Shown: positions 6,711 through 45,301 of the stretch, one piece after another
Layout of the letters: each line of letters starts with the position of its first letter
How positions within the stretch are numbered: the stretch's first letter is position 1
DNA from: Terricaulis silvestris
GTDB lineage: Bacteria; Pseudomonadota; Alphaproteobacteria; Caulobacterales; Aquidulcibacteraceae
NCBI RefSeq assembly: GCF_009792355.1
Contig: NZ_CP047045.1
Location: 1,700,501-1,764,500 of the forward strand
DNA: 64,000 nucleotides
Direction: 5' to 3'
Translations under genes and position numbers: made by a program
Notes under the pieces: model-generated
What the model was told of the DNA's origin: nothing
Databases searched by the model: none
Seen by the model: the letters and a program-made list of their open reading frames with translations, nothing else

Positions 6711-6723
6711 ATCTAAGATATCA
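6711..6723 (-). promoter_or_regulatory. Candidate GntR operator in the rhaEW / rhamnulokinase divergent promoter
   Basis: ATCTAAGATATCA on the plus strand, which reads TGATATCTTAGAT on the minus strand. It is one of five near-identical sites in the window (others at 12063, 18606, 37606 and 45289). The core ATCTNAGAT is palindromic. It lies 39 bases before the rhaEW start and 31 bases before the kinase start, a position suited to controlling both. Binding by the GntR protein encoded at 36835-37623 is inferred from the copy at that gene's own start. Confidence 0.6.
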
Positions 6724-6754
6724 GTAAGGAAGGGGGTGTTGTAAAGGATGCTGT

Positions 6755-8179
6755 ATGGCCGGGGACTGCGTGCTCGTCCTCGACGTGGGTAAGAGCAACA
6801 CGAAGCTCACCCTTTGGACCGCAGCGGGACGCCGTCTGGCAGGTCGCGTTCGGCCAAATTCGAGCGTGCGGGCGCCGACCCATGCCGCCCTTGATGTTGA
6901 GGGTATCGAGAGCTGGCTCGAGGGCTCGCTCGCCGAGCTTTCCGAAATCGCCGATGTCGGGTTCATCGTTCCTGTTGCGCATGGCGCGGCGGCCGCTCTG
7001 CTCGACGGTGATCAATTGGCGTTGCCGCCGGCGTGCTATGAGGAGTTTCCCCCGCCGCCGCTTTACGCCGAATATGATGCGCTGCGCGATCCCTTCGTCG
7101 ACACCGGATCCCCACGATTCCCTGAAGGGCTGAACCTCGGCGCTCAGCTCTATCGGTTGGAAACCCTCGCGCCGCAGATTTGGCCGAGCGCGGGCGTACT
7201 TGTCACCTATCCGCAGTATTGGGCTTGGCGCCTATCAGGTATTGCTTCGACGGAGGTCACCAGTCTCGGCTGTCACTCGGATTTGTGGCGCCCCTTTGAG
7301 CGTCGCTTTTCCAATCTCGCGGTGAAGCGCGGATGGGCGGAGCGATTTGCGCCCCTCCGTGACGCGCGCGAAATATTAGGTCCAATCACGCGTGAGTGGG
7401 CGCATCGCACGGGTTTGCCTTCCGATTGCCAAGTGCTGTGTGGGGTTCACGATAGCAATGCCGCTTTCCACGGAGCGCGCGCGCATAGCGAACTCGCCGG
7501 CCGGGATGTCACGGTGATTTCGACGGGCACTTGGTTTGTCGCGATGCGCGCCCCGGCCCCGGAATCACCATTTGACCCTGGGCGGCTCTGCCCCGAGCGC
7601 GACACGCTGCTCAATGTGGATATCGACGGCAATCCAGCGCCTTCCGCCCGCTTCATGGGCGGCCGCGAGGTCGAGTTCTTAGTTGGTGGAGACGACAGTC
7701 CGCTCCGCGCCCCGGACTTTGTCCGCGATGTGGCGCCTAAAGCCATCTGCGACGTGCTGGTTAGCGGCAGCATGATAGCGCCCACTTTTGCACGCGGCGT
7801 GGGACCCTTCCCTAAACGGGAGGGACGCTGGGAAGGCCCAGAACTCAAGGGCGCAGCGCGTCGCGCTGCCGTCGGGCTCTATCTCGCACTCGTCGCGGAC
7901 GCCTCGCTTTCGCTCATTGGTGCGTGCGATGCGATCGTGGTGGAGGGGCGCTTTGCAGAAGATGCAAGTTTTATCGGCATGCTCGCATCGCTTCGTTCCG
8001 ATGCCGACGTGTACATCACGACTTCCAACGATGCGCTGGCGTTTGGAGCGCAACGCCTCGTCAATGACGCTCTAACGCCGCCTGAAGCGCTCAAAAAAGC
8101 GTCGCCTCTGCCCTATGAGGTGGGCGCTTATGCGTCGAGATGGAAGCATGCGCTCGTGGGGGGCAGAGAACGGGCATGA
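6755..8179 (+). CDS. FGGY-family kinase, probable L-rhamnulokinase
   Basis: Probably phosphorylates L-rhamnulose with ATP to give the substrate of RhaEW. The 474-residue protein has the FGGY N-terminal phosphate loop DVGKSNTK (residues 10-17), the catalytic-Asp motif GVHDSNAAF near residue 230, and an STGTW ATP-binding segment typical of sugar kinases. The start at 6755 is supported by AAAGGA seven bases upstream; an ATG at 6748 is out of frame. Rhamnulokinase is chosen over fuculokinase because of the divergent rhaEW-rhaI genes, not from sequence alone. Its stop overlaps the next start (ATGA at 8176). Confidence 0.85.
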
Positions 8180-9432
8180 TAGCGGCATCGATCTCGGATT
8201 ATCGCGAACTCGCCCGTAGAAGGCTGCCACGCTTCCTTTTCGACTATATCGACGGTGGCTCATGCGGCGAGGAGACGCTTCGGCGCAATCGTCAAGACCT
8301 CATGGAGGTCACGCTCCGCCAGCGCGTGCTGCGGGACGTCTCCCAAATCGACTTGAGCACGACATTGCTTGGCCAACATTTGTCCTTGCCGGTTGCCTTG
8401 GGGCCGATCGGGCTTGCGGGGATAAACGCAAGACGTGGCGAAGTGCAGGCTGCGCGCGCCGCGGAGGCCGCTGGCGTACCATTTACACTCTCAACCGTCG
8501 GCGTCTGTTCATTGCAAGAGGTCAGCGCCGGGATCGCTAAGCCCTTCTGGTTTCAGCTCTACATGATCCGCGATCGCGGTTTCATGAGCGAATTGCTGGC
8601 GCAAGCGGAAACGGCGCAATGCAGTGCGCTGGTGTTCACCGTCGACATGCCCGTGCCGGGCGCGCGTTATCGCGATGTGCGTTCAGGCCTTGCTGGTGCG
8701 CCGGGCCTTCGAGGTCAGTTGCGCCGGTTCGCCCAGGCCATGACGCGTCCATCGTGGGCATGGGACGTGGGGGTGTGCGGAGGCCCCCACAACCTTGGCA
8801 ATGTCGCACCAGTTCTCGAAGGCCGGAGCGGCGTGGAAGACTTCTTTACGTGGATGCGCGACAATTTCGATCCTTCCGTCAACTGGTCGGACCTCGAATG
8901 GGTGCGGGCACGATGGCGCGGACCGCTGATACTGAAGGGTATCCTCGATCCAGAAGATGCGGCGGCGGCCGCGCACATGGGCGCTGACGCTATCGTTGTC
9001 TCCAATCATGGCGGCCGCCAACTGGACGGCGTGAGTTCAAGCGCACGCGCACTTCCACGCATTGCTGATAAAGTTGGAGACAGCCTCACAATCCTGGCCG
9101 ATGGCGGCGTCCGTTCTGGCCTTGATGTCGTGCGTATGCTCGCTCTCGGCGCTAGGTGCGTCTTGCTCGGTCGCGCTTGGGCACATGCGTTAGGCGCGCG
9201 CGGCGAGCGAGGCGTCGCTCATGTGTTGGACATCATCGGCAAGGAAATGCGTGTGGCAATGTCCCTATCCGGGGTGACCCGTGTCGACCAAATCACGTGC
9301 GAGATCGTCGACGACGTCGCGCGGTGTGACATGCGGCGCGAGATCACGAAGCGCCTGAGAGACGTGCGTAGAGGGGAACCTTGGGCAGGGCGCGCGTCGC
9401 GGCCCGAGAGTTCGAACGATACTGATGCTTGA
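8176..9432 (+). CDS. lldD: FMN-dependent L-lactate / 2-hydroxyacid dehydrogenase
   Basis: Oxidises an L-2-hydroxyacid, most likely L-lactate, to the ketoacid. The 418-residue protein starts at the ATG overlapping the kinase stop; a longer frame is open upstream but lies inside the kinase gene. Family landmarks are FDYIDGG near the N-terminus, [12 protein letters not shown], the active-site [10 protein letters not shown] with the catalytic His at about residue 278, and [10 protein letters not shown] for FMN phosphate binding. Co-transcription with the kinase and the production of L-lactate by RhaEW make L-lactate to pyruvate the obvious role. A paralogue lies at 21646-22905. Confidence 0.88.
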
Positions 9433-10682: not shown

Positions 10683-12005
10683 CTAAGGCGTCGCTTCGCG
10701 TGCAGCGTTAAGGATGGAATGCTGGCGGTGTTCAGCTGCCCTCTGGTCTAAATCGGCTGAAGCCGTCGTGCTCGCGTTCCAAGCGAGAACTGCTGCCGCA
10801 AAGCTGCCTGGTGCGAGGAGCATTAGAGCAAGCTGGAGAGATCCTTCTCCCGCCACGCCATGCAAGGCATCGCTCAGCGCCCCAGTAGCGAGAGGTCCCA
10901 ATCCGCCCCCGACGATACTCAGCAACACATACAAAGCGGCGATCGCTCTGGCGCGCTGCCGCGGCGCGACTAAGCCATGCATGATCGACATAGTCGGCGC
11001 AGATTGAAGAGAGAAGACGAACGAATTTAGCACCATGGCAGCGAGAATAATGTCAGTGCGGGGTATAAACAGAATCGACGTGGTCAACACGCTGCCGAAA
11101 GCTATGCAAACAGCCGCCGCCCTTAGTTGGAGCGTTTCTCGATTGGTCGCATAGCGCGAAGCCAACTCGCCACCTAAATATGTGCCGAGGAGAAATCCCA
11201 AACTGGCCATACCGAACCAGGTACCGGTTTCTCCGACGCTCCATTCGTAACGTCTAATGAAATAGGTCGGCATCCAACCGCCGATTGCGGATCCAAAGAA
11301 GGATGCGGTTGTCGCTGTGAGCGCGAGGTATCTGTACGTCTTGACGCGCCACAATGTCGTCAACACGCTAAGCCAGCTGGCCGTGGCGATTTCGGTCTCC
11401 TGCTGTTCCTCCAACGACGCGGTCGAGGGGCCTTGCTCACGGATTCTACGAGGTTCGCGCAACGACAACCAAGCGAGAGCCGCAAGCGCAATTCCTGGAG
11501 CAGCTAAGATAACAAACATCAGTCGCCATCCAAAAAATTGGGCTAGCCATCCGCATAGGATACTGCCCGCGACAAGGCAGACGGCGTTGCCGGACATATA
11601 TACTCCGACCGCTCTTGCCCGCTCAGTGCGATCGTAGTGATCAGCAATGAGAGAATGTGCGGGAGGATTAAGACCCGCATCGCCAATTGCTGCAGCGCCT
11701 CGCAGCATCAGCAACGGCAAGAAGCTTGTGACGAATGCGCTTGAGGCGACTCCGATGCTCCAGATGATAGTTGTCAACGATACAATCCGGGGTCGATCGC
11801 CACGGTCCGCCCAGCGGCCAACGAATACGCCGGCGATGGAATAAACCAGGGCAAACACAAGGCCGCTCAGCAAACCAATCTGGGTGTCGCTAATGTTGAG
11901 GTCGACCTTGATCTCTTGCAGCACCAGAACGAGTGCAGTGCGGTCCATTGAGTTGACGGCCGTGAGGACCGTCAGGAGCGCCAGCATGTACGATCGGTAT
12001 TTCAT
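10683..12005 (-). CDS. MFS transporter, Spinster-like
   Basis: Inner-membrane carrier of 440 residues with about twelve hydrophobic segments. The N-terminal pattern (NSMDRTALVLVLQEI, then GLLSGLVFALVYSIAGVFVG and GRWADRGDRPR between helices 2 and 3) is that of the proteobacterial Spinster-like MFS group, often found beside sugar-acid and aromatic catabolic genes. The ATG at 12005 follows GCGAGG. It is monocistronic, with its own operator copy 58 bases upstream at 12063-12075, which argues that it imports or exports a compound of the rhamnose locus. The substrate is unknown. Confidence 0.85.
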   Translation of the reverse strand: MKYRSYMLALLTVLTAVNSMDRTALVLVLQEIKVDLNISDTQIGLLSGLVFALVYSIAGVFVGRWADRGDRPRIVSLTTIIWSIGVASSAFVTSFLPLLMLRGAAAIGDAGLNPPAHSLIADHYDRTERARAVGVYMSGNAVCLVAGSILCGWLAQFFGWRLMFVILAAPGIALAALAWLSLREPRRIREQGPSTASLEEQQETEIATASWLSVLTTLWRVKTYRYLALTATTASFFGSAIGGWMPTYFIRRYEWSVGETGTWFGMASLGFLLGTYLGGELASRYATNRETLQLRAAAVCIAFGSVLTTSILFIPRTDIILAAMVLNSFVFSLQSAPTMSIMHGLVAPRQRARAIAALYVLLSIVGGGLGPLATGALSDALHGVAGEGSLQLALMLLAPGSFAAAVLAWNASTTASADLDQRAAEHRQHSILNAAREATP

Positions 12006-12102: not shown

Positions 12103-15393
<3,291 letters not shown>

Positions 15394-15458
15394 TCAGCCC
15401 CCAACACGGCCGCTTGTTTCTTCACATCGCACGCCAGTCGTGGCGTCCGTTTGCAGGC

Positions 15459-16328
15459 TCATGCATTGACTTCGCCCTGCACCCGTCCGGGCTTCTCAAC
15501 TTCGAAAGCGAAGAGCCCGCCCGCGAGGGGCTGGGCTTGCTTGTCGTCCGCTGAGAAGTCTAGTTGCGCGGTGGTGACATAAAGCGTCTTCAAATCCTTG
15601 CCGCCGAAGGCGGGCTTCGTCACTTGCGCGCAGGGCAATGCAATTTGGTCAATGCGTTCGCCGGCGGGGGAAATTAAGTCCAGCCGCCAGCCATTGAAGA
15701 GCGCTACCCAGATTTCTCCTCGCTCGTTCATCGCCATGCCATCTGGAAAGACGTTGGGCTCGAATTGAACGAATACGCGCTTAGCTGAAAGATCGCCCTC
15801 AGCGTTCACATCGAACGCATAAATCGCGCCTTCCACGGAATTGCAGTGATAGAGCGTTCGCCCGTCTGGGCTGATCACGGGACCATTTGTGACGACATAG
15901 CCGCTGTCACAGGTAACGATGCTGCTTTCTCGTCCATTCCACCGAAACAGTTTACCCGTCGCCATGGTGTTGGATTCGTTCAACGTGCCAAACCAGAGTT
16001 GGCCCTTGGTATCGGCATAACCGTCATTGATGCGGTCGCCGGGCGGGTGGTTGGGGATCGAGGCCCGGGTCGTCACCGCGTTTGTGTCGGGATCCCAAAC
16101 GGCGAGCTTGTTGCCCATCCCAATCACGAACCCGCCTCCGCGTCGCGGCAGCACGAAGCCGGGCGGTCCGGGCGTCACCCAAGACGTTCGCCCGTCAGTG
16201 GCGGGCTTATAGCGGTGGATGGCGTGGCCTTTGATGTCGACGAAATAGAGCGCTTGTTCCCGCTCGATCCACACAGGGCCTTCGCCAAGGTGGCAGCGCG
16301 CCTGCCATACGCATTGGGGCGTGGTCAT
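15459..16328 (-). CDS. SMP-30/regucalcin-family sugar lactonase
   Basis: A six-bladed propeller of 289 residues predicted to hydrolyse an aldonolactone to the aldonate in the cytoplasm. The metal-binding residues of the family are visible: Glu in HLGEGPVW near residue 15, Asn in DRINDGYAD, Asn in VVTNGPVISPDG and Asp in VFPDGMAMN. L-rhamnono-1,4-lactone is a plausible substrate because of the neighbouring FAH hydrolase, but arabino- or galactono-lactone is equally possible on sequence. The start overlaps the stop of the FAD oxidoreductase gene by four bases, so they are translationally coupled. Confidence 0.85.
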   Translation of the reverse strand: MTTPQCVWQARCHLGEGPVWIEREQALYFVDIKGHAIHRYKPATDGRTSWVTPGPPGFVLPRRGGGFVIGMGNKLAVWDPDTNAVTTRASIPNHPPGDRINDGYADTKGQLWFGTLNESNTMATGKLFRWNGRESSIVTCDSGYVVTNGPVISPDGRTLYHCNSVEGAIYAFDVNAEGDLSAKRVFVQFEPNVFPDGMAMNERGEIWVALFNGWRLDLISPAGERIDQIALPCAQVTKPAFGGKDLKTLYVTTAQLDFSADDKQAQPLAGGLFAFEVEKPGRVQGEVNA

Positions 16329-17746
16329 GGGCGTGCTCCGCCGTCGACAAAAATCTTGCCCGGATTGAGAATGTTGGCGGGATCGAGTGCTGCCTTGATG
16401 GTGCGCATCAGAGTGACATTAGTCTCGCCGCGCTCGGCGATCAGTTTGTCGCGTTTGCCAATGCCGATGCCATGTTCGCCGGTGCAGGTGCCGCCGGCTT
16501 CGATCGCGCGCGATATCATGCGCTCATTGATGCGAGAAGCGCGCGCCATATGGGTCGGGTTTTGCGGGTCGATCGCGAACATGACGTGGTAATTGCCGTC
16601 ACCGACGTGGCCGACAATGGTGGCAAGCGCGCCTTCCGCTTCAATATCCGCGCGCGTCTTCAAGATGCTGTCGGCAAGAGCCGCAATCGGCACGCAAACG
16701 TCGGTGGTCCAGACGACGGCGCCTGGCAGCAACGCCTTTGCCGCGAAATAGGCGTCATGGCGGGCCTTCCAAAGCCGTGAGCGTTCTTCTGGCGTGCGGG
16801 CGATGATGAGCGCGCCGCCGCGATGGCCAGCGGCGATGTCAGCGAATTGCAAGGCTTGCTCTTCAACCCCTGCAGGCGAGCCGTGAAATTCGAGCAGGAG
16901 CGTGGGTTGTTCGACGAGCCTAAGCTTCGAAAACGCGTTCGACGCACGCACCTGAGTTTCGTCGAGCAATTCAATGCGCGCGACACCCAGACCCAATTGA
17001 ATGGTCTCAATGACGGCTGAGACCGCGCCATCCAGGTCCTTGAAGACGCAGGTGGCTGAGAGGATTTTCTCCGGTATGCCATAAAGGCGAAGCGTGACCT
17101 CGGTGATGACGCCAAGCGTTCCTTCGGACCCAACGAAGAGCCCGGTCAAATCGTATCCCGCTGACGACTTTGCTGCTCGAACGCCTGTCTCAATGACGGC
17201 GCCGTTGGCCAGCACGACTTTCGCCGTCAGCACATTGTCGCGCATGGTCCCGTAGCGCACCGCGTTCGTGCCCGACGCGCGCGTCGCTGTCATGCCGCCC
17301 AAGGTGGCGTTAGCGCCAGGATCGATCGGAAAGAAGAGGCCAAGGTCGCGCAAATGATGGTTGAGCTGCTCGCGGGTGACGCCGGCCTGCACGGTGGCCA
17401 ACAGGTTTTCGGCGCTTACGTCCAGAATCGCGTTCATGCGCGTTAGGTCGAGCGAGACGCCGCCGTGGATGGCTGACAAATGGCCTTCGAGCGAAGTGCC
17501 TGCGCCATGCGCTATAACCGGTAGGTCATTGTCAGCGCACCAGCGGATGGCGTCAGCGACGTCTTCATTGCTCTCCGCGTAGATCACAGCATCGGGCGCA
17601 AGCGAGGCGTGATGGCCTTCGAGCCCGCTATGTTGCGAGACGATAGCGTGGGCTGTGGAAAGGCGTTCGCCAAAGCGTTCGCGCAGCGCGTTGAGCGCTG
17701 CGTCGCCGGCGTCATCGAATTCGCGCCTAATCTTAGGCTCGCTCAT
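16325..17746 (-). CDS. FAD-linked D-lactate / 2-hydroxyacid dehydrogenase
   Basis: A 473-residue flavoprotein of the GlcD/Dld/LDHD family that oxidises a 2-hydroxyacid to the ketoacid. The FAD domain shows VIAHGAGTSLEGH and FPIDPGANATLGGMTATRASG, with VGSEGTLGVITEVTLRL after it. The C-terminal metal and substrate site shows GHVGDGNYHVMF and TCTGEHGIGIGK. Starts at the ATG at 17746, 14 bases inside the end of the FAH gene. In this operon it may act on lactate released by the diketo-acid hydrolase or on a sugar-derived 2-hydroxyacid. The stereospecificity is inferred from the family. Confidence 0.88.
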   Translation of the reverse strand: MSEPKIRREFDDAGDAALNALRERFGERLSTAHAIVSQHSGLEGHHASLAPDAVIYAESNEDVADAIRWCADNDLPVIAHGAGTSLEGHLSAIHGGVSLDLTRMNAILDVSAENLLATVQAGVTREQLNHHLRDLGLFFPIDPGANATLGGMTATRASGTNAVRYGTMRDNVLTAKVVLANGAVIETGVRAAKSSAGYDLTGLFVGSEGTLGVITEVTLRLYGIPEKILSATCVFKDLDGAVSAVIETIQLGLGVARIELLDETQVRASNAFSKLRLVEQPTLLLEFHGSPAGVEEQALQFADIAAGHRGGALIIARTPEERSRLWKARHDAYFAAKALLPGAVVWTTDVCVPIAALADSILKTRADIEAEGALATIVGHVGDGNYHVMFAIDPQNPTHMARASRINERMISRAIEAGGTCTGEHGIGIGKRDKLIAERGETNVTLMRTIKAALDPANILNPGKIFVDGGARP

Positions 17747-18584
17747 AAGCTTTGACCGTTTGGCGTTGTTCGCCGAGGCCGCTAATGCCCAAGCTCATGG
17801 TGTCGCCGGCCTTCAAGAATGTTGGAGGTTTGCGCCCCATGCCTACTCCAGGCGGGGTGCCCGTGGTAATGACGTCCCCGGGCATCAGCGTCATGAACCG
17901 CGACACGTAGGCTACGATCTCAGCGCACGAGAAGATCATCGTCGACGTGTTGCCGCGTTGGGCGGGCGCGCCGTTCAGATCCAGCCAAAGGTCGAGATTT
18001 TGCGGGTCGCCGATTTCGTCGCGCGTCACAAGCCAGGGGCCTAGCGGCCCAAAGGTGTCGCAGCCCTTGCCTTTATCCCAAGTCCCGCCGCGCTCATTTT
18101 GAAAGGCGCGTTCGGACACATCGTTGACGACGAGATAACCGGCGACATGATCGAGCGCTTTGCCTTCGCTCACATAGCTTGCGCGTTCGCCGATGACGAT
18201 CCCAAGTTCGACTTCCCAATCTGTTTTTTGCGATTCAAGCGGAAGCATGACATCGTCGTTCGGTCCTACGATGCAGGAGGGCGCCTTCATGAAGACGACC
18301 GGCTCGGTCGGAATGGGGAGGCCCGATTCTTCGGCGTGGTCGCGATAATTGAGCCCGATGGCTATGAACTTGCTGGGCGTAGGTACGGGTGGTCCGAGCT
18401 GCGGAGAGTCAGTGACGATCGGCAATGTCTCCGCGTTGAACGATGAGGCGCGGGAGAGGGTGCGAAGATCGAACCCGCCTTGCAGCGAGGCCTGAATGTC
18501 TGCGGGCAGGGTGCGAAGCCCGCCCGCATCGTCCACGGAGGCAAAATTTAAGCGGCCAGATGTGCGATACGTTGCGAGCTTCAC
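17733..18584 (-). CDS. FAH-family hydrolase, probable 2,4-diketo-3-deoxy-L-rhamnonate hydrolase
   Basis: A 283-residue fumarylacetoacetate-hydrolase-fold enzyme. The acidic metal site is seen in TDWEVELGIVIG (about 121-132) and the later VVNDVSERAFQ; GLNYRDHAEE and TGTPPGVGMG are typical of the bacterial subgroup that includes LRA6 of the non-phosphorylative rhamnose pathway, which yields pyruvate and L-lactate. That function is suggested by the rhamnose context, but related enzymes act on other acylpyruvates. It is the first gene of the unit FAH, FAD dehydrogenase, SMP-30, GH106. Its start is 22 bases from the operator at 18606. Confidence 0.85.
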   Translation of the reverse strand: MKLATYRTSGRLNFASVDDAGGLRTLPADIQASLQGGFDLRTLSRASSFNAETLPIVTDSPQLGPPVPTPSKFIAIGLNYRDHAEESGLPIPTEPVVFMKAPSCIVGPNDDVMLPLESQKTDWEVELGIVIGERASYVSEGKALDHVAGYLVVNDVSERAFQNERGGTWDKGKGCDTFGPLGPWLVTRDEIGDPQNLDLWLDLNGAPAQRGNTSTMIFSCAEIVAYVSRFMTLMPGDVITTGTPPGVGMGRKPPTFLKAGDTMSLGISGLGEQRQTVKAYERA

Positions 18585-18605: not shown

Positions 18606-18618
18606 TGATATCTGAGAT
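18606..18618 (+). promoter_or_regulatory. Candidate GntR operator between FAH and GH127 genes
   Basis: TGATATCTGAGAT followed by G, identical over its core to the site at 12063. It lies in the divergent interval between the FAH start (18584) and the GH127 gene and could control both. Confidence 0.6.
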
Positions 18619-18701
18619 GGTAGATGTTTCGTCAGCGTGCATCAAGCCGTCTGTCGCGGCTATGTTCGCATAGGATTTGGATATTGGACCGTCCCACAAG
18701 C

Positions 18702-20495
18702 GTGCCGATTATCTCAGAAGTACCCGCCGTGAGGTTATTCGTGCTGCAAAGGCTCCCAGTTCGCGCCGTGAGCTTGAGCGGCGAGTTTGGGCGTCGGATC
18801 GACGCCATCATCAATCAAAACATCCTGGCTCTGAACTTGGACGAGGTGTTCCTCGCGCCTTTTCGTGACCGTGGGGACAAAGGCTATATCGGCTTTGGCA
18901 AATTCATCGACGCTGTCTGTCACCTGGCAGCAACGACAAATGATCCTCGCCTTGTCGAGTTGAAGCGGAGAGCGGTCGACGGTTTGATCGCGACCCAAGA
19001 ACCGGACGGCTATATCGGCATCATCAAGGAGCCGGCGCAGCGCGTGCAAAGCCTGTGGGACCTCCACGAGGGCGCTTATCTCATCTGGGGGCTGCTCTCT
19101 GATTACATTCTCTACGAAAATGCCGCGGCGCTCGACACCGCAACGCGGCTCGCTGATTTCCTCATAGACCAGATCTCCGACCCTTCTGTCGTGATCGACA
19201 GCCGAGATGGTCTTCTCGGTTTTGAAATTGCGGCGCTGGGGTTGGATCGCGCCTTGATCCGGCTATTCAAACTGACCGGTGACGAGAAGTATCTGGACTT
19301 CGCAAAACGCAGCTACGAAACGGGTGCGCGCGAGATAGCGGTGCAGCACGACCTTCGCGATTGTAACGGCCACGCTTACACGTTTCTCTCAAATAGACTT
19401 GCCGAATTGGATCTGTTCGAACTTTCGCACGACGCAAGACTTCTTTCGAACTCTTACAGCCTCATCGAGTTTTTGACGAAGCAAGACGGCCTTCTCGTTA
19501 CGGGCTCGTGCAGCCTCTGGGAGAGCTTCCACAACACGCAAGTTGGCGTCGGCAACGTCAGCGAAACCTGCGCCGGCACATATGTCGCGCGCTTCATGGA
19601 CGCGATGGTCCGCATAGCCGGCGACAGTCTCTACGGAGACATCCTCGAGCGCGACATTTACAACGCACTTTTCGCCGCAACCACGCCGGATGGACGATTC
19701 AGTCGATACCACACTCCGTTCGAAGGAGAACGTTGTCTAGATCCGCACGCTCCGCGGTTTTGCTGCGCCAACAACAATAAGCGATTTTTGGCCGATTTGA
19801 GCAGCTGGATTTACTATCTCGATCCCGATGAAAAGACGGTGGTCGTGAATTTGTACTCGGCCTCACGGGCGAAAATAGAACTCGACGGCGTAAGCCTCGT
19901 CGTCGAGCAAGATACTGCATATCCGCGCAATGGAGACGTTCGCATCAAGGTCGATCCTTCGACCGAAGTAGAGTTCACGTTGAAGCTGCGCATCCCGCGA
20001 TGGTGCAAAAGCGCAAGTTTTTCCATTAACGGCGGCGCAGCAACCGAAGCGGCCAGCGGCGCTTTCCACGCAATCAAACGCGTTTGGAAAACTGGCGATA
20101 CGATTGAGCTCAGACTGCCAATGGCCATTCGTTTTGTCCGCGGTCGCCGCGCTCAATTCGGACGCGTAGCCGTGATGCGAGGGCCGGTGATCTATACCTA
20201 TAACCCCGAGCAAAACACGATCGCGGAGCAACTCCCGAATTTTGACATCCGCGCCGCGGCTATTAATCCAGACGAGGCCGAGATGCAGATTGCGTCGCGT
20301 GATCTATCCGGCGCGACTGCGTGCAACATTGCGGCTTGGCCGCCATCGCCAATCATCAATCCTTATCCTCAAGTCCCGCAGACCACGCTCACACTGACCG
20401 AATATCCAGACCCCGGCGGGCGAGCCATCTACTTTCTCGTTCCCAATCTATCCTCCTCCGCACTGGTCGACGATGAGCTGATCTCGGCGCGTTAG
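18702..20495 (+). CDS. GH127-family glycosidase (beta-L-arabinofuranosidase-like)
   Basis: About 597 residues from the chosen GTG. The family's zinc-cysteine catalytic centre is complete: the Glu and Cys of VSETCAGTY and the adjacent Cys pair of PRFCCANNN correspond to the Glu-Cys-Cys-Cys zinc ligands known from HypBA1, in which one Cys is the nucleophile. HEGAYLIWGLLSDY and GSCSLWESFHN are further family blocks. Known members cleave beta-L-arabinofuranosides or, in rhamnogalacturonan II breakdown, aceric acid linkages. The start is uncertain: the frame is open from 18624, but residues before about 18702 look non-coding; a GTG at 18729 is another option. No ribosome site or signal peptide is evident. 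Confidence 0.85.
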   Translation: MPIISEVPAVRLFVLQRLPVRAVSLSGEFGRRIDAIINQNILALNLDEVFLAPFRDRGDKGYIGFGKFIDAVCHLAATTNDPRLVELKRRAVDGLIATQEPDGYIGIIKEPAQRVQSLWDLHEGAYLIWGLLSDYILYENAAALDTATRLADFLIDQISDPSVVIDSRDGLLGFEIAALGLDRALIRLFKLTGDEKYLDFAKRSYETGAREIAVQHDLRDCNGHAYTFLSNRLAELDLFELSHDARLLSNSYSLIEFLTKQDGLLVTGSCSLWESFHNTQVGVGNVSETCAGTYVARFMDAMVRIAGDSLYGDILERDIYNALFAATTPDGRFSRYHTPFEGERCLDPHAPRFCCANNNKRFLADLSSWIYYLDPDEKTVVVNLYSASRAKIELDGVSLVVEQDTAYPRNGDVRIKVDPSTEVEFTLKLRIPRWCKSASFSINGGAATEAASGAFHAIKRVWKTGDTIELRLPMAIRFVRGRRAQFGRVAVMRGPVIYTYNPEQNTIAEQLPNFDIRAAAINPDEAEMQIASRDLSGATACNIAAWPPSPIINPYPQVPQTTLTLTEYPDPGGRAIYFLVPNLSSSALVDDELISAR

Positions 20496-21611: not shown

Positions 21612-21645
21612 TCAATCGCCTTTCGCGCGCCGTTGGAGTTCAGGT

Positions 21646-22905: not shown

Positions 22906-22960
22906 GGCATCCTCCCGTGCGCCGACGATTAATGTTGGCGTAGCGACGATACGGTGGACG

Positions 22961-22983
22961 CCAGTCCATATCCAGTCCAATAT
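22961..22983. repeat. Tandem 11/12-bp direct repeat upstream of lysR
   Basis: CCAGTCCATAT at 22961-22971 is followed at once by CCAGTCCAATAT at 22972-22983. If the FMN dehydrogenase starts at 22905, the repeat is in the divergent promoter and may be a regulator-binding element. If it starts at 22980, the repeat is coding. Confidence 0.4.
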
Positions 22984-23000
22984 CCGATGGCTATAGTTTA

Positions 23001-23010: not shown

Positions 23011-23020
23011 GTTATGGAGC

Positions 23021-28576: not shown

Positions 28577-28582
28577 AACCCA

Positions 28583-29860: not shown

Positions 29861-29865
29861 AGCGG

Positions 29866-31387: not shown

Positions 31388-31489
31388 CATGCCATGTGCG
31401 ACCTGCGCCTCTGCAGGCGGCCTTCGGCAGAACCGAGGCCGGCCAGCGACGACACAGACACGGGGCGCACCAGATTGTGTGGAGCGTTC

Positions 31490-32620
31490 ATGAACAAGGG
31501 CGTGATGACGCGGGGACGGCGCTTCCCGGCCTGGGTGTCTCGAATGCTATGGGGCGCGGTGGTGATTGGTCTCACTGCATTGCTCTCGCTCGGCGGTGTT
31601 GAAGTCTTCCTCGCCGCGAAATTCGGTCAGTTTGAGCACATACCTGCTGACACACGTTTTGCCTGCCAGCGCATCAGCGGCATGCCGCCGAGTGCGAAGG
31701 CCGCAGTGGATTGGGATTTACGCCGCGCGTTTTTACCTGCCGCGAACTTTTTCGATACGACCGCCGATCCTCGCCAGAATGGAATCTATCTTCTTGATCT
31801 CGAAACTCTCGTCGCGAGGAACGTGACGCCCGCCGACGTCACGATGAAGCCGTTGTCGGCGTCGCTCTATGTTGGACCCGATGGCAGTCGGCGCCTTTTT
31901 GTTCTTGATGTCACGGCCGATGGGCCTTTGGTTGTCATTTTCGATGTTGACGAAGCGGGGGGGCTCTCGCTTGTCGACCGCGTCGGAGGCCCTGAACTGT
32001 TCGCCGCCGACGACTTGGTCGCAGTGGGTCCCCGGCAATTCTACTATGTCAATTCTTCGCGGATGACGGGATTTGACTCGCCGCAAAATAGGTGGCGCAT
32101 TCTGCTTGGCCTCGACGCCTCCGGCACCGTGTTGTTCTACGATGGCGCACAATTTCAGACGTTAGCCACGGAGGTGACATATCCAAATGGTGTTGCGATC
32201 TCACCCAACGGTGAAGAAGTCTACATTACGCAGACTTACCCAATGCGCGTTGCGATTTTTGACCGCGACGCAGCCACGAACGGGCTCACGTTCCGCGAGT
32301 ACGTGCCGGTGCCCGGCGCCCCCGATAAGGTGTTCGTCGCGCCAGATGGCGCGGTGTTCGTGACGGCGCTGCCGCATATGCTGAGCAATTTAGAATACGT
32401 GCTCAAGCCAAACCAGCCGCGCGCGCCGGCGCAGATTGTAAGGCTCAACCCAGCTGGGGCCTCGCCACGCGTGGAACGGGTCTGGAGCGATGACGGACAG
32501 ATGATCACGTCGGTGACGAGCGGCGCGCCCTATGCCCACACAAATGCGGGCTACAGCTTCCTGATTAGCGGCATTAGTGACGCTTACGCGATGGCGTGCG
32601 CGCCCGGCGAAGCGCACTGA
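31490..32620 (+). CDS. Membrane-anchored paraoxonase/arylesterase-like lactonase
   Basis: A 376-residue propeller with an uncleaved-looking N-terminal hydrophobic helix (about residues 16-40), so probably anchored with the domain in the periplasm. Blocks such as ADDLVAVGPRQFYYVN, YPNGVAISPNGEEVYIT and a later PDKVFVAPDG line up by eye with serum paraoxonase (NDIVAVGP.HFY.TN, FANGINISPDGKYVYI and the DN pair). The calcium-site Asn in YPNG is kept, but the Asp-Asn pair reads Asp-Lys, so activity may differ. GGAG precedes the ATG at 31490; the open frame begins at 31394. It could open a sugar lactone or hydrolyse an aryl ester. A broken paralogue is at 29866. Confidence 0.7.
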   Translation: MNKGVMTRGRRFPAWVSRMLWGAVVIGLTALLSLGGVEVFLAAKFGQFEHIPADTRFACQRISGMPPSAKAAVDWDLRRAFLPAANFFDTTADPRQNGIYLLDLETLVARNVTPADVTMKPLSASLYVGPDGSRRLFVLDVTADGPLVVIFDVDEAGGLSLVDRVGGPELFAADDLVAVGPRQFYYVNSSRMTGFDSPQNRWRILLGLDASGTVLFYDGAQFQTLATEVTYPNGVAISPNGEEVYITQTYPMRVAIFDRDAATNGLTFREYVPVPGAPDKVFVAPDGAVFVTALPHMLSNLEYVLKPNQPRAPAQIVRLNPAGASPRVERVWSDDGQMITSVTSGAPYAHTNAGYSFLISGISDAYAMACAPGEAH

Positions 32621-32677
32621 CGACGTCGCCCGGGTGGGGGCGCCAAAGCATGACGCGTAAAGCGCAAGGCGGACACA

Positions 32678-34999: not shown

Positions 35000-35039
35000 A
35001 ATCGGGATTGGCGTTCCGTTGAAAAGTTTTGGAGGGACG

Positions 35040-36834: not shown

Positions 36835-37623
36835 CTAAGCGCCTGCGCGCCGGCGTCGAGGCCGCTTACCCGAACCAAACTTGGCATCGCCCACCGCGCG
36901 CGAGTGTACCTCCTGGGTGCGGGAGATGTGTTCGCGCAGCAACTGGAGCGCGGTGCCGAGGTCGTTATTCTTAACGAGATCGACCATGAGCCCGTGCTCT
37001 TCGAGCGAGCGCTTCAGCAAGTAGGGCTCAGGTGTTGAAAGATGAGTGCGGAGGGCAGCAACGCGCGGATTAATCGCTTCATAGGCCTTCGCCAGCAACG
37101 AATTGCCGCAATAGACGAAGAACGAATTGTGGAACGAGTTGTCCAATTGCTGGTAGGCCACGGGCTTCTTTAAGTCGAAGCAGACGCGCATGTCGTCGAC
37201 GATACTCGCCAGAAGTGCGGCCAGCTGGGCGCGATCACGCTGCATCGAAAAGCGGAGCCCCGCTTGTTCAAGTTCGAGGCGCACTTCGCAGAGTTCTCGC
37301 ACTTGCTCAGCGTCCGGCTTGAACACAAGGCCGCCCCGTTGGGGCAGGATCTGCACAAGCCCAATCGCCTGAAGCTGCAGGAGCGCCTCCCGCACAGGCG
37401 ATTTACTGACGCCGAAGGTCAGGGCCAGGGACTTTTCGCTGAGCAGCTCGCCCAATGGGTAGGAGCCGTCGATGATGCCCGTGCGCAGCCGGTCGGCGAT
37501 CACCGCCGATAGTGTCCGAGCGCGCTCGACCTGCTGCACAACGGGCAAGGCCGGGGCCGGGGCAAATGGCGCCACTGGCTTTCGACCCTTGTCCCGTGGC
37601 TTGACTGATATCTTAGATGGCAT
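36835..37623 (-). CDS. GntR-family regulator, FCD/FadR subfamily; probable master regulator
   Basis: A 262-residue repressor or activator. The winged helix-turn-helix is at about 35-105 (IADRLRTGIIDGSYPLGELL, then EKSLALTFGVSKSPVREALLQLQ). The C-terminal FCD domain keeps the metal-site pattern: Asp and His in LDNSFHNSFF and later His residues in EEHGLMV and LREHISR. The ATG at 37623 is preferred; the frame is open to 37674. A copy of the window's recurrent operator occupies codons 2-6, so either the gene is controlled by an operator at its very start or translation begins further in. Convergent with the esterase gene and divergent from the hydroxyacid dehydrogenase gene. Confidence 0.9.
   Translation of the reverse strand: MPSKISVKPRDKGRKPVAPFAPAPALPVVQQVERARTLSAVIADRLRTGIIDGSYPLGELLSEKSLALTFGVSKSPVREALLQLQAIGLVQILPQRGGLVFKPDAEQVRELCEVRLELEQAGLRFSMQRDRAQLAALLASIVDDMRVCFDLKKPVAYQQLDNSFHNSFFVYCGNSLLAKAYEAINPRVAALRTHLSTPEPYLLKRSLEEHGLMVDLVKNNDLGTALQLLREHISRTQEVHSRAVGDAKFGSGKRPRRRRAGA
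37606..37618 (+). promoter_or_regulatory. Candidate GntR operator at the gntR start (autoregulation)
   Basis: TGATATCTTAGAT followed by G. It overlaps the first codons of the GntR gene as annotated, encoding Ser-Lys-Ile-Ser on the minus strand. Its match to sites before four other transcription units ties the regulator to the regulon. Confidence 0.6.
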
Positions 37624-37690
37624 ATTGCTCTGTTGGTCCGCACTTTGTGGGCATAGTCTAGTCCCGCCTGTCATCCAGGGCGAGGCCTTG

Positions 37691-37704
37691 CACCTTAGAT
37701 ATGA
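37691..37704 (-). promoter_or_regulatory. Second candidate GntR site at the hydroxyacid dehydrogenase start
   Basis: CACCTTAGATATGA reads TCATATCTAAGGTG on the minus strand, matching 11 of the 13 fixed bases of the motif TGATATCTNAGATG. It overlaps the ATG at 37701. With the site at 37606 it brackets the divergent promoter. Confidence 0.45.
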
Positions 37705-38669
37705 GAGTTAAAGACTTGCGCAAAATCCTGGTGACAGACGCCACCTTCCCGTCGTTTGACCACGAGAAAGCAGTGGCGGCGCGCCACGGCGCCTCTTTTC
37801 ACGTGTGCCAATGCAAGGGCGCCGAGGAGGTGGCGGCGGCTGCCCAGGGCGTCGATGTGTTGGTGGTCCAGTTCGCCCAAGTGGGCGCAGACGCCATTGC
37901 AAAGCTCAATGATGGCGCCGCGATCGTCCGCTACGGCATCGGCCTCGACAATATCGATCTCAAAGCCGCCCAGGCCCGCGGCGTGCCGGTCGCCTACGTG
38001 CCCGACTACGCCACCGGCGAAGTGGCCGATCACACGGCCGCACTCATCTTGGCGGCGAGCCGAAAGATCATCGCGCTCGATCAATCCGTTCGTGCCGGAA
38101 GGTGGGATCCGGTCGGCGTCGCGCGGCCGATGAAGGCCTATTCGGAATCGGTTGTTGGTTTTGTCGGCTTTGGGCGGATTGGGCGCGGGGTTTATGCGCG
38201 TCTGGCGCCCTTCGGTTTCAAGGCGGTTGCCTATGATCCATTTGCGGACAAGGTTGAGCTTGCCGAACTCGGCGTCGAAGCGGTCGATCTCGACACGGTG
38301 TTCAAACGCGCCGATGTGCTGACGCTCCATAGTCCGCTGACCGACGAGACCCGCCACGTGGTCAACGCAAAGCGTCTGGCTTCGATGAAGCGGGACGCCT
38401 TTATTGTGAACACAGCGCGCGGCCCCCTGGTTGACCCAATCGCCCTCGCCGACGCCCTCGACCAGGGCCTTATCGCGGGTGCGGCGCTTGATGTGTTCCA
38501 AACGGAGCCTCTGGCGCAAGATTCACCGCTCAGAACCTGTCCAAATCTAATCCTCTCGCCGCACGTGGCTTGGTATTCCGCAGGCTCGGCGATCCGCGTT
38601 CAGGAGCTGGCGGCTGATGAGATCGAGCGTCACCTGACTGGCCGCGCCGCGCGAAGGCCGGCTTACTAG
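37701..38669 (+). CDS. NAD-dependent D-2-hydroxyacid dehydrogenase
   Basis: A 322-residue member of the phosphoglycerate-dehydrogenase/CtBP-like family. The Rossmann motif is GFVGFGRIGRG; the catalytic Arg is in VNTARGPLVD, the Glu in DVFQTEP and the His in LSPHVAWYS. It interconverts a 2-ketoacid and a D-2-hydroxyacid in the cytoplasm. It heads the long plus-strand unit that ends with the GH36 gene, and its start is overlaid by a candidate operator. Its substrate in the locus (glyoxylate, hydroxypyruvate, or a sugar-derived ketoacid) is unknown. Confidence 0.87.
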   Translation: MRVKDLRKILVTDATFPSFDHEKAVAARHGASFHVCQCKGAEEVAAAAQGVDVLVVQFAQVGADAIAKLNDGAAIVRYGIGLDNIDLKAAQARGVPVAYVPDYATGEVADHTAALILAASRKIIALDQSVRAGRWDPVGVARPMKAYSESVVGFVGFGRIGRGVYARLAPFGFKAVAYDPFADKVELAELGVEAVDLDTVFKRADVLTLHSPLTDETRHVVNAKRLASMKRDAFIVNTARGPLVDPIALADALDQGLIAGAALDVFQTEPLAQDSPLRTCPNLILSPHVAWYSAGSAIRVQELAADEIERHLTGRAARRPAY

Positions 38670-42423: not shown

Positions 42424-44519
42424 TGAATTCGATCCGCGCCAGGGAGACAATAGATCGCGCCAACTTAGGCCCCGCTTGGGCAAAGTCCGAGACGCGTTTT
42501 TCGCGCTTGCTCTCGCCTGGCGTGGGCTTTTCCTTCTTCTATCAAGGCAAGGCTCATGGCCCCGAGCTCGATGCGGCATGGAGCGCCGGCGAACACCAGG
42601 CAACCGGCGACGGCGACGCCTATGTGTTTGACCATGTGAGCGGCCTGCGCGTCACGAGAACCGTTCGCGCAGTGGGGCCTAGAGCTATCGAGTATCAGCT
42701 CACCCTGCAGAATTTGAGCGAACAGCTGCTTGATCCAATCAGCTCCTTTCAACCGCTCAACATCGTATTTGTCGAAGCGGAGCGCACCAGCACGACGGTT
42801 CATTCGTTCGGCGGCGGCGCATCGGATGGCTGCTTGCCGCCCAGGGCGTTTGCATTGCGCAAGCAGGTGCTGACGCCGTCCATGGTCGAACACGGCATGG
42901 TCGAACTGGGTGCTGAGGGCGGGCGATCCTCGGGCAAGGATATGCCGTTCTTCTTCGTGCACAAGGACGATCTCCACGAAGGGCTCTTCGCCGCCCTCGG
43001 ATGGTCGGGACAATGGGGTGCCGTGGTGCGCGCAAACCCTATGCAGCAGACGCTCAACATTCGTGGCAAGATTGCGGATCTCAATCTGTCGCTTGAAGCC
43101 GGTGAGGAGATTGTAGGTCCCACGATATTGCTGGGCTTTTATCAGGGCGAACTCAGCGAGGGATCAAACCAATTGCGGCGCTTGATCCGCGAACACTACG
43201 CGCCGCGCCTTAGCGATGCGGAGTACACGCCGATCGCCACCTACGACACGTTCTTTGGCTTGGGCGGGTCATTCGATGAAGAGCTGCTGACACGGGTTGC
43301 CGATGAGGCGGCGGCGCTCGGTCAGGAATGTTTTCTGCTCGATGCGGGCTGGTACAAGGGTGACGATTGGTTCGTAAGCCTGGGTAACTGGGACGTAAAC
43401 GAGAAGAGATTTCCCAGCGGCCTTCGCGCCTTCGCCGATCACGTGCGCAACAAGGGCATGAAGTTTGGCTTGTGGTTCGAGCCAGAGCGCGTCGCGGAGG
43501 GCTCAGCCCTTGCCAGCGTGCATCCTGAGTGGGTGCTTTGGGACTATGGGCGCGGCAATGGCGAGGATGGCCGCCCGCCTTGGTTTGGGCACGTGCCTTG
43601 GACGGAAGACTTTCGCACGTCGCTCCCAGAGAGCTGGTTTTCGACGCGCTTTGGTCTCCTCAATTTCGCGCGCAGCGACGTGCAAGATTACGTTGTCGAA
43701 CTCATCTCACGCTACATCCGAGACTTCGGCGTTGGCTACATTCGCTACGATTGCAATCTGGACCCGCTGCCTTATTGGAACGCTACTGACGAGCCGGGTC
43801 GGCGCGGCATCACGCAGCTCAAATACATCCAAGGTTTCTACGCCGCGTTCGATCTCCTGCGCACACTCCATCCGGACGTGATTCTCGAAGGATGTTCAAG
43901 CGGAGGGCGGCGCATTGATTTGGAGACCGTGCGGCGCTTTCACACCATGTGGATCAGCGATTGCACAGTGGATTCCGCGATCGTCCGTTTCCATCTGTTT
44001 GGGCTGAGCCACCTCTTGCCGGGCAGCTACAATTACGTGGCTTACGCGCCGCCTGTGCAGCATCCGGTCGAGACGGATAGGATCAGCACCCAACACATGT
44101 TCGCCGGCGCGATTGGTACGGGCGGGCGGCTCGACCTCTGGCCGCCGGCCATGAGAGCCAACGCCATGCGCGACTTTGACGTGTGGAAGCGCCTTAGGCT
44201 CTATCTCATGGAGGATTACTACGCGCTCACGGACCAGCCGGGTGATCTCAACAGCTGGAGCGCTTGGCAATTTCACGACCCAGACGATCAATCGGGATTT
44301 GTGCAAACATTCAGAGGAGTTGACGCAAAAGAAAATCGCCACTTCAATTTGCGCGGTCTCGACGCGCACGCTCGCTACCGTTTCGTCGACGCCTTCAGCG
44401 GCGATACTTTCGAAACCACGGGCGCGGACGCGCTCGAAGCGGGCATCGAAACCAGACAAGCGCAGAACGCGTCTCGTGTCTTTCAGTACTCGCGAACGGC
44501 CGGACCGGCATCGCCATGA
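42423..44519 (+). CDS. GH36-family alpha-galactosidase
   Basis: A 698-residue retaining alpha-galactosidase without a signal peptide. The N-terminal supersandwich domain ends near residue 290. The barrel shows FLLDAGWYKGDDW, RFPSGLRAFADHVRNKGMKFG-type sequence and HPEWVL. The nucleophile Asp is in IRYDCNLD and the acid/base Asp in MWISDCT, preceded by ILEGCSSGGRRID, all standard GH36 positions. The ATG at 42423 is taken instead of the TTG three bases earlier. It ends the plus-strand unit; a broken paralogue follows directly. Confidence 0.9.
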   Translation: MNSIRARETIDRANLGPAWAKSETRFSRLLSPGVGFSFFYQGKAHGPELDAAWSAGEHQATGDGDAYVFDHVSGLRVTRTVRAVGPRAIEYQLTLQNLSEQLLDPISSFQPLNIVFVEAERTSTTVHSFGGGASDGCLPPRAFALRKQVLTPSMVEHGMVELGAEGGRSSGKDMPFFFVHKDDLHEGLFAALGWSGQWGAVVRANPMQQTLNIRGKIADLNLSLEAGEEIVGPTILLGFYQGELSEGSNQLRRLIREHYAPRLSDAEYTPIATYDTFFGLGGSFDEELLTRVADEAAALGQECFLLDAGWYKGDDWFVSLGNWDVNEKRFPSGLRAFADHVRNKGMKFGLWFEPERVAEGSALASVHPEWVLWDYGRGNGEDGRPPWFGHVPWTEDFRTSLPESWFSTRFGLLNFARSDVQDYVVELISRYIRDFGVGYIRYDCNLDPLPYWNATDEPGRRGITQLKYIQGFYAAFDLLRTLHPDVILEGCSSGGRRIDLETVRRFHTMWISDCTVDSAIVRFHLFGLSHLLPGSYNYVAYAPPVQHPVETDRISTQHMFAGAIGTGGRLDLWPPAMRANAMRDFDVWKRLRLYLMEDYYALTDQPGDLNSWSAWQFHDPDDQSGFVQTFRGVDAKENRHFNLRGLDAHARYRFVDAFSGDTFETTGADALEAGIETRQAQNASRVFQYSRTAGPASP

Positions 44520-45113
44520 CGGCGGCGATAAACATCAAAGGAGCGTGGCTGCCCGGGGATGGGCGCCTCCAGCATGCATTCGGTGCGGGCCCGGGTTTCT
44601 CATTCAAGCTCGATGGCGTTCGCCTGAGTGCGGAGTTCGGCGAGGACTGGACGATCACGCGCAGGGGCGGCGGCGCGAACGGGCGGGTTGAGATGAGACA
44701 CAAGAGGGGCCTCACCGTCACGCGGGAGGTCCGCACGTTCGGCGCGAGTGGCGCTTTTTGAGCACACAACAACATTCAAGAACACCGGAGCGGAACTGGC
44801 GCCGGTCAGCATGGGCGAAGCGATCATGCCGCCCAAGGCGCTCACGATTGCGCGGCATGCGTTCTCAGAGATTTTCGACTACACTGCCTCTGTTGATCTC
44901 ACCACCGAGGGCGGGCGGGCGTCGAACCGAGATCTGCCGTTCTTCTTCCTGCACAACGCTCCACTTGAGGAGGGGTTCTTCTTCGGCTTTGGCTGGTCGG
45001 GTCAGTGGGAGGCGGCAGTTGTTCGAGACCCGCGCGCCGTCAAGCGCACGCAGGCGGTCGCCTATGCGATCTACACGCGTGCGATCAATCTCGAAGACAT
45101 CTTTGGAGCTTGA
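44516..45113 (+). pseudogene. Truncated, frameshifted GH36 paralogue fused to a luxR 3' end
   Basis: The first part (44516-44761) and the second frame (44748-45035) together match the N-terminal 175 or so residues of the intact GH36 protein, for example DLPFFFLHNAPLEEGFFFG and GWSGQWEAAVVRDP against DMPFFFVHKDDLHEGLFAA and GWSGQWGAVVRANP. The frame changes in a five-T run at about 44753-44757; one T fewer restores a continuous match. At 45036 the GH36 homology stops and 78 bases follow that are 86 percent identical to the 3' end of the luxR gene at 46071-46148 (24 of 25 residues the same). No active site remains, so this is a scar. Confidence 0.85.
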
Positions 45114-45288
45114 GGATGGAAATCGCGAAGCTGTTTGATGTTTTCTTGGCCTTTGTTTTGGTCGCGTGCTCCACCGAAGCCCGTGAGGGGCTTCTAGCTG
45201 TTTTGAGGTTAGGCGTGGGCCCCACCCACGGGTTGGCATTCAAGCCATCGAGCCTCAAAATCGACCGGCTGCAATGCGTCCCTATTCT

Positions 45289-45301
45289 ATCTGAGATATC
45301 A
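45289..45301 (-). promoter_or_regulatory. Fifth candidate GntR operator, 71 bases before luxR
   Basis: ATCTGAGATATCA on the plus strand reads TGATATCTCAGAT on the minus strand, a full match to the motif. It is outside the catabolic genes, in the promoter region of the conjugation-module luxR, and on the far side of the recombination scar. Confidence 0.55.

What the first reader, a model, noticed from the sequence alone, without database searches (positions are those of the whole stretch)
6711..45301. A shared operator (TGATATCTNAGATG) marks a probable GntR regulon across the locus
Five 13-bp sites with at most the central base different lie at 6711, 12063, 18606, 37606 and 45289, each in an intergenic promoter position or at a gene start; weaker copies are at 37691 and 23001. 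One is at the start of the only GntR/FCD regulator. The core ATCTNAGAT is palindromic, as expected for this family. The motif links rhaEW/kinase, an MFS, FAH/GH127 and gntR in one regulon.
Basis: partly seen in the sequence, partly recalled or inferred. Interest (0 to 1): 0.7.

Follow-up and report, generated by a model that had tools for sequence, protein, structure and literature searches.

The report
Portable rhamnose regulon on mobile element
Seven near-identical DNA switches, found at no other place in this bacterium's genome, mark one set of plant-rhamnose-using genes probably controlled by a single repressor, all carried on a probable mobile element; one switch lies in front of a gene that may control the element's own transfer.

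Summary
TGATATCTNAGAT occurs exactly seven times in the 3.86-Mb genome, all within 51 kb: the five given sites plus two left of the window (-721, -5790); the reversed-pattern control gives none. In a matrix scan of 124 kb the seven score at least 22.9 bits; the next sequence scores 12.4. The weak copy at 37691 is well placed; the one at 23001 is not supported.

The GntR/FCD protein (36835-37674, minus) is the likely binder. In 12 of 21 loci of 35-43% identical homologues from other bacteria, a matrix built only from this locus's sites finds its best match just upstream of the homologue's own gene. Binding, inducer and regulation were not tested.

Best reading: a GntR repressor of rhamnose/rhamnoside use (RhaEW, RhaI, kinase, MFS, FAH-SGL-GH106 operon, GH127, SDR, CehA/McbA enzyme, itself). 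The regulon lies on an 83.5-kb putative integrative conjugative element at tRNA-His. The site at 45285 precedes a LuxR gene on the conjugation side of an apparent cargo junction, so coupling of sugar use to transfer is possible. A published precedent exists (ICEKKS102, BphS/TraR).

The parts
6707..6723 (-). operator, between divergent rhaEW (4570-6672 -) and FGGY kinase (6755-8179 +)
   Evidence: TGATATCTTAGATGCTT, 22.9 bits
12063..12079 (+). operator, about 57 bp upstream of MFS gene 10683-12005 (-)
   Evidence: 27.0 bits; overlaps a TTGACC-N17-TATCAG promoter-like pair on the minus strand (consensus score only)
18606..18622 (+). operator, between divergent FAH operon (17733-18584 -, then FAD-oxidase, SGL, GH106) and GH127 gene (18624-20495 +)
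   Evidence: 24.9 bits
37606..37622 (+). operator at the 5' end of gntR; overlaps codons 1-6 if translation starts at Met18 of the ORF
   Evidence: 26.9 bits
37688..37704 (-). weak operator-like copy at the start of 2-hydroxyacid dehydrogenase gene 37701-38669
   Evidence: 12.4 bits, next best in 124 kb after the seven
45285..45301 (-). operator 70 bp upstream of the luxR GTG at 45372
   Evidence: leave-one-out score 22.2 against 10.9 for the best non-site
36835..37674 (-). GntR/FCD regulator, proposed binder of the operator
   Evidence: PF00392 9.9e-17 and PF07729 5.6e-20
4570..6672 (-). RhaEW, bifunctional rhamnulose-1-phosphate aldolase/dehydrogenase
   Evidence: NF006189 and TIGR02632 above cut-off
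3260..4558 (-). L-rhamnose isomerase-like protein
   Evidence: TIGR02629 3.7e-187, 622 bits, just below its cut-off of 647
61..3495 (-). GH78 alpha-L-rhamnosidase; this ORF's 5' end overlaps rhaI, so its true start is probably downstream
   Evidence: PF17389 3.8e-105
6755..8179 (+). FGGY sugar kinase, proposed rhamnulokinase
   Evidence: PF21546 1.9e-52
10683..12005 (-). MFS transporter
   Evidence: PF07690 2e-52
12103..18584 (-). probable operon GH106 - SGL lactonase - FAD-linked oxidase - FAH-type hydrolase, read right to left from the 18606 operator
   Evidence: Pfam; FAH best fits NF053535 2,4-didehydro-3-deoxy-L-rhamnonate hydrolase, 408 bits, below its cut-off of 500; ORFs overlap at 16325-16328 and 17733-17746
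18624..20495 (+). GH127-family glycosidase
   Evidence: PF07944 4.1e-34
45372..46148 (+). LuxR-type autoinducer-binding regulator upstream of traG
   Evidence: PF03472 4.7e-27, PF00196 3e-13
45035..45113 (+). 79-bp remnant of a luxR 3' end, 86% identical to 46070-46148; apparent junction of cargo and conjugation module
46311..57257 (+). type IV secretion/conjugation genes (TraG, VirB11-like, TrbE/VirB4-like, TrbL, TrbI; the ORFs between were not all searched)

Best explanation
TGATATCTNAGATGTCA is the operator of the GntR/FCD protein encoded at 36835-37674. The protein most likely acts as a dimeric repressor: with no inducer it sits on seven sites that lie on or beside promoters and start codons, its own included. 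An acidic intermediate of L-rhamnose breakdown, perhaps a rhamnonate derivative, then enters the FCD domain and releases it. That opens rhaEW-rhaI, the kinase operon, the MFS gene, the FAH-oxidase-lactonase-GH106 operon, GH127, an SDR, a CehA/McbA-family enzyme and gntR. Shown here: the sites, their restriction to this locus, the gene families, and the same motif in front of distant gntR homologues. Inferred: dimer binding, repression rather than activation, the inducer, and operon limits. The set lies wholly inside a putative integrative conjugative element, so the regulon could travel as one package. The seventh operator lies in front of the element's luxR and may bring that gene under the same control.
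For: Seven exact sites in 3.86 Mb, all within 51 kb, with 0 control matches. Clean score gap in 124 kb, 22.9 against 12.4, also with each site left out of the matrix, at least 22.2 against at most 13.5. Footprint: 12 of 21 homologue loci have their best match between -137 and -46 of the homology start; mean near-start score 10.8; none of 1000 column-permuted matrices reaches that mean, and 4 of 1000 reach the count of 12. Bradyrhizobium CB82 carries GACTGATATCTTAGATCTGA and Ottowia thiooxydans AACTGATATCTGAGATATCT. On a tree of 39 rows all 17 motif rows (the query, labelled so by construction, and 16 homologues) fall in one set with 4 motif-free rows: 4 changes against a shuffled mean of 12.8, 0 of 500 shuffles as low. 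Target genes are rhamnose and rhamnoside genes.
Against: No binding, expression or inducer data. 9 of 21 homologue loci lack the motif. Of the 80 relatives returned only 7 score 12 or more near the start (4 of the best 14, 3 of the other 66), and being merely the locus's best match near the start is no more than mildly enriched there (6 of 14, 21 of 66). The tree set that holds the query and the motif rows has weak support, 81/64. The closest homologue found is 43% identical, and no orthologous locus was found: 1 of 299 genomes of the order at E 1e-30, its own. Some operators overlap start codons, so start sites and repression geometry are uncertain. Cargo genes from 20.7 to 36.8 kb carry no strong site and probably follow another regulator, such as the LysR at 23021. 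Twelve places outside the element match the 17-mer with 3 mismatches, more than the control's 1; I take them as chance or coding bias, which is not shown.
Confidence: 0.85

Rival explanations
1. The sites belong to another regulator of the element, such as the LysR at 23021 or the LuxR at 45372.
For: Both are encoded inside or next to the 51-kb stretch, and one site lies 70 bp upstream of luxR.
Against: The motif follows GntR homologues in other genera. 29 other luxR loci, of 47 other luxR matches listed, hold no strong match, best 11.5 bits. The LysR promoter has only a 6.2-bit sequence.
Confidence: 0.06
2. The GntR protein activates rather than represses, or does so at some of the sites.
For: GntR-family activators of catabolic operons are reported (PMC10282184, passages seen); promoter positions here are uncertain.
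Against: Some sites overlap promoter-like elements or start codons. DhdR, a GntR-family protein with a similar half-site, is a repressor (PMC8651671, passages seen).
Confidence: 0.12
3. The repeats are traces of a mobile sequence or of a recombination site, not regulatory sites.
For: They lie on a putative mobile element, and exact copies nowhere else in the genome.
Against: Identity stops at about 20 bp; flanks differ. All seven are at gene starts, and other bacteria have the same sequence in front of gntR homologues.
Confidence: 0.02

Closest known systems
DhdR of Achromobacter denitrificans (GntR family, D-2-hydroxyglutarate repressor; PMC8651671, abstract and passages seen)
   Same: GntR-family, binds a short odd-length palindrome, GTTATCAGATAAC, in its own promoter and is released by a hydroxy acid; half-site TATC...GATA as here
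   Different: one base between TATC and GATA, against three here; one operon, not a seven-site set; effector here unknown. Its protein sequence was not compared
Rhamnose regulons by RhaS/RhaR (AraC), RhaR (DeoR), RhaR/RhiR/RhmR (LacI) (PMC3870299, passages seen)
   Same: control the same kind of enzymes; that paper reports RhaEW in Alphaproteobacteria among others
   Different: regulator families named are AraC, DeoR and LacI; the word GntR occurs 0 times in its main text
ICEKKS102Tn4677 with BphS and TraR (PMC11448139 abstract and passages seen; BphS as GntR family from PMC10282184 passages)
   Same: a GntR-family repressor of the cargo's catabolic genes also governs a regulator of the element's transfer
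   Different: there a LysR-type TraR is co-transcribed with cargo and the paper found no BphS-like site in the 1 kb upstream of traR; here an operator copy lies in front of a LuxR gene, and coupling is only predicted

Membership tests
GntR family, FCD subfamily | N-terminal GntR winged helix (PF00392) and C-terminal FCD domain (PF07729) | tested here: met
   9.9e-17 and 5.6e-20, both above cut-off
GntR family, FCD subfamily | Asp/His metal-site residues of FCD domains (role recalled, not from a call) | tested here: met
   D178, H182, H227, H249 invariant in 15 of 15 aligned sequences; metal binding itself not tested
GntR family, FCD subfamily | palindromic operator in own promoter region | tested here: met
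   37606-37622 at the gntR start; 12 of 21 homologue loci
GntR family, FCD subfamily | binds that operator | not testable with these tools
   needs protein-DNA assay
DhdR-type operator | TATC-N1-GATA spacing | tested here: not met
   all seven sites have three bases (TNA) between the half-sites; some homologues have one (L037, L042: TATCTGATA)
L-rhamnose catabolic regulon | sites before isomerase, kinase, aldolase and transport genes | tested here: met
   the isomerase is just below its model's cut-off and second in its operon, the kinase is assigned by family and place only, and the MFS substrate is unknown
L-rhamnose catabolic regulon | induced by rhamnose or a derivative | not testable with these tools
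   needs expression data
Integrative and conjugative element | integrase, attachment repeats at a tRNA gene, empty site in relatives | tested here: met
   tyrosine recombinase L011:2816-4285; 21-bp repeat at tRNA-His; flanking genes 84.9 kb apart here; of 17 relatives with both matches on one contig, 8 have them 1.3-5.6 kb apart and 9 have them 9 to 509 kb apart
Integrative and conjugative element | type IV secretion and coupling protein genes | tested here: met
Integrative and conjugative element | relaxase | tested here: inconclusive
   407-aa ORF L010:5678-6901 matches PF03432 and PF11843 only below cut-off
Integrative and conjugative element | excision and transfer | not testable with these tools
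   needs experiment

The most novel reading that the evidence does not exclude
A sugar-acid-sensing GntR repressor of the cargo also controls the element's luxR through a copy of its operator placed in the luxR promoter, so that the element's transfer responds to plant rhamnosides. This would be another, independently built case of cargo-induced transfer besides ICEKKS102, wired by an operator instead of by co-transcription.
Probability: 0.35. Interest if true: 0.65.

Novelty: new variant of a known kind. Interest (0 to 1): 0.45.

Why it matters
If true, it adds a GntR/FCD regulator to the AraC, DeoR and LacI types described for rhamnose use in PMC3870299, and gives a group of GntR regulators in Alpha- and Betaproteobacteria a predicted operator. 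It also shows a complete regulon (regulator, sites, targets) confined to a probable mobile element, with a testable link between diet and gene transfer.

Tried and rejected

First versions of the footprint test and the first tree treated loci L039, L041 and L047 in the wrong orientation, because genome-search loci are not turned to the match. One search replaces them, with a shorter flank; the count stayed 12 of 21, L039 dropping out and L047 coming in, while the permutation control for the count rose from 0 to 4 of 1000. L055, L058 and L062 are three Sinorhizobium fredii records, not fully independent; all three are motif-free. L043 and L099 lie at zero distance on the tree and count as one. 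The plasmid homologue loci are 10 of 1048 matching records: ten of the 15 listed; H10, H11, H13, H14 and H15 were left out, which by organism and identity look like copies of H9 and H12 (not checked). The tree used 38 homologues: all 11 unnamed-genome loci, 7 of 10 plasmid loci, and 20 of the 80 loci; it is a chosen subset.

A loose search of ten homologue genomes with two mismatches gave 12 to 86 matches each, more than the reversed control in all ten; I cannot separate real sites from chance there. Exact 14-mers in other genomes: 2 of 60 family genomes and 15 of 385 class genomes, own included in both; the others have 1 to 3 each, and by my reading of the table 12 class genomes show the reversed control, so these look like chance. 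The one other family genome with a site (L012) shows, by my reading of its ORFs, no sugar genes around it. The other class loci with sites were not inspected.

tRNA-Phe as the integration site was considered and dropped: no long direct repeat. luxI search in the own genome found nothing, but no control genome rang, so no conclusion. Promoter guesses are consensus scores only. No structure was predicted.

Literature: ten searches, of which four carried motif letters. Besides the DhdR paper these four listed PMC9430930, PMC3831814 and PMC4477161, seen as listings only and not opened, so I cannot say that no paper has this operator; the library also lacks most subscription journals.
Full report
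Observation. Against shuffles of the window, 7 matches with up to 2 mismatches compare with 0.66 expected, and none of 100 shuffles reached 7. The whole genome (3,864,763 bases, one contig, 97.4% complete by the table) holds exactly seven TGATATCTNAGAT, at 1694710, 1699779, 1707211, 1712563, 1719106, 1738106 and 1745789, and none of the reversed control. The window begins at genome base 1700501, so two sites lie left of it, at window coordinates -5790 and -721. With one mismatch the genome adds one site far away (1159596) and the opposite-strand reading of a known one. The extended operator is TGATATCTNAGATGTCA, usually preceded by AC (five of seven AAC or GAC, one TAC, one AAA). With exactly 3 mismatches this 17-mer matches at 12 further places outside the element, against 1 control match; none outside has fewer mismatches. 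In a 124-kb scan with a matrix symmetrised over the seven, they score 22.9 to 29.0 bits and the next is 12.4, at 37688, between gntR and its divergent neighbour. With each site left out in turn (unsymmetrised 20-column matrix), the lowest site scores 22.2 and the highest non-site 13.5.

What the sites precede. -5790: a 790-aa ORF of the CehA/McbA metallohydrolase family (NF038032, above cut-off). -721: a short-chain dehydrogenase (-670..25; assigned from its sequence by eye, not run against Pfam). 6707: RhaEW with the rhamnose isomerase-like gene on one side and an FGGY kinase on the other. 12063: an MFS transporter. 18606: an FAH hydrolase best matched by the 2,4-didehydro-3-deoxy-L-rhamnonate hydrolase model, below its cut-off, followed by an FAD-linked oxidase, a lactonase and a GH106 rhamnosidase; and GH127 on the other side. 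37606: gntR itself; the site overlaps codons 1-6 if translation begins at Met18. 45285: luxR. The stretch from 20.7 to 36.8 kb (lactonases, FMN dehydrogenase, LysR, TonB receptor, two MFS genes, aldolase, apiosidase-like enzyme, esterase) holds no strong site and probably answers to another regulator.

Which protein binds. Footprints in relatives give the main test. A matrix made only from the seven sites was run over 21 loci with GntR homologues: 11 from the search of 385 genomes of the class (12 listed matches, own excluded) and 10 from plasmids. In 12 of 21 the best match of the locus lies upstream of the homologue, between -137 and -46 of the homology start. Of 1000 column-permuted matrices, 4 reach 12 loci and none reaches the observed mean near-start score (10.8; permuted maximum 6.7). 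Examples: Bradyrhizobium CB82 GACTGATATCTTAGATCTGA, Phyllobacterium ATATGATATCTCAGATATAA, G326 AACTGGTATCTTAGATCTAA. Among 80 named relatives from genome contigs, 4 of the best 14 and 3 of the other 66 score 12 or more, while the weaker criterion of being the locus's best match is met by 6 of 14 and 21 of 66. Ottowia thiooxydans has 29.6 bits and two overlapping copies. On a tree of 39 rows the 17 motif rows, the query being one by construction, need 4 changes against a shuffled mean of 12.8, 0 of 500 as low; the set that holds the query, all motif rows and 4 motif-free rows has support of only 81/64. Nine of 21 loci lack the motif. That fits drift of specificity in the family, but it also limits the inference.

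Setting. The sugar genes sit in a putative integrative conjugative element. A 21-bp repeat, TGCCGCCTTAGCTCAGTTGGT, lies at the 5' end of tRNA-His at the right (68386-68406) and 83.55 kb to the left (-15164 to -15144). A tyrosine recombinase lies next to tRNA-His (L011:2816-4285). The flanking AsmA-like and ATP-grasp genes are 84.9 kb apart here. Of 17 other genomes of the genus with both matches on one contig, 8 have them 1.3 to 5.6 kb apart (G050, G045, G054, G043, G032, G039, G034, G046; in G054 the AsmA match is partial) and 9 have them 9 to 509 kb apart. The close pairs suggest an empty site; the others show that the spot varies. Conjugation genes run from 46311 to 57257; the relaxase call is weak. 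All seven operators are inside these limits. Its class includes G590, whose gntR homologue lies at zero branch length from that of a Ferrovibrio MAG, an alphaproteobacterium; so by inference the host is one too.

The luxR site. Bases 45035-45113 are 86% identical to the 3' end of the intact luxR (46070-46148), and directly left of them lie broken pieces of a GH36-like gene (44516 to about 45030). I read this as the cargo joined to the remnant of a former upstream luxR; five of the fetched luxR loci in fact have two luxR genes in tandem (L192, L194, L195, L196, L199). The operator at 45285 is then on the conjugation side, in the promoter region of the intact luxR. None of 29 other luxR loci, fetched out of 47 other matches listed, has a comparable site (best 11.5 bits), including L182, whose luxR is 57% identical and also followed by traG. 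The site therefore seems to have come with, or after, the cargo. Whether GntR really controls luxR, and luxR transfer, is unknown.

Comparison with what is known. DhdR, a GntR-family repressor, binds GTTATCAGATAAC and is released by D-2-hydroxyglutarate (PMC8651671, abstract and passages): a similar half-site with another spacing. Rhamnose regulons described by comparative genomics use AraC, DeoR and LacI regulators (PMC3870299, passages). In ICEKKS102Tn4677 the cargo repressor BphS controls traR, and transfer is reported as activated in the bphS mutant (PMC11448139, abstract and passages); BphS is of the GntR family (PMC10282184, passages). The general idea of the novel case is thus in print; the wiring here would differ.

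Verdict. A real, locus-specific operator set, with the GntR/FCD protein as the probable binder (0.85). It is a new variant of a known kind; the luxR link (0.35) is what would raise its interest.

Noticed in passing
window -15164 to 68406 (genome 1685336-1768906): 83.5-kb putative integrative conjugative element at tRNA-His; the left end keeps what looks like a tRNA-His-like 5' fragment that differs from the right copy after the 21-bp repeat.
   Followed up: partly
44516-45113: Frame-broken pieces of a second GH36-like gene, joined to a 79-bp luxR 3' remnant.
   Followed up: partly
20691-36818: Second cargo module (LysR, FMN dehydrogenase, TonB receptor, MFS, HpcH aldolase, apiosidase-like enzyme) without the operator; possibly under the LysR at 23021.
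   Followed up: no
57992-59515: TIR-domain protein (PF13676, 2.5e-16) just after the conjugation genes; possible defence gene.
   Followed up: no
window -2462 to -1647 (L010:17538-18353): Partial delta-aminolevulinic acid dehydratase-like ORF covering profile positions 2-199 of 317, inside the element.
   Followed up: no
L100:9924-9955: Two overlapping copies of the operator in front of an Ottowia thiooxydans gntR homologue.
   Followed up: no
L037, L042 upstream of gntR homologues: Operator variant TGATATCTGATATACCA, with one base between TATC and GATA as in DhdR, against three in the window; spacing seems to vary within one group of regulators.
   Followed up: no
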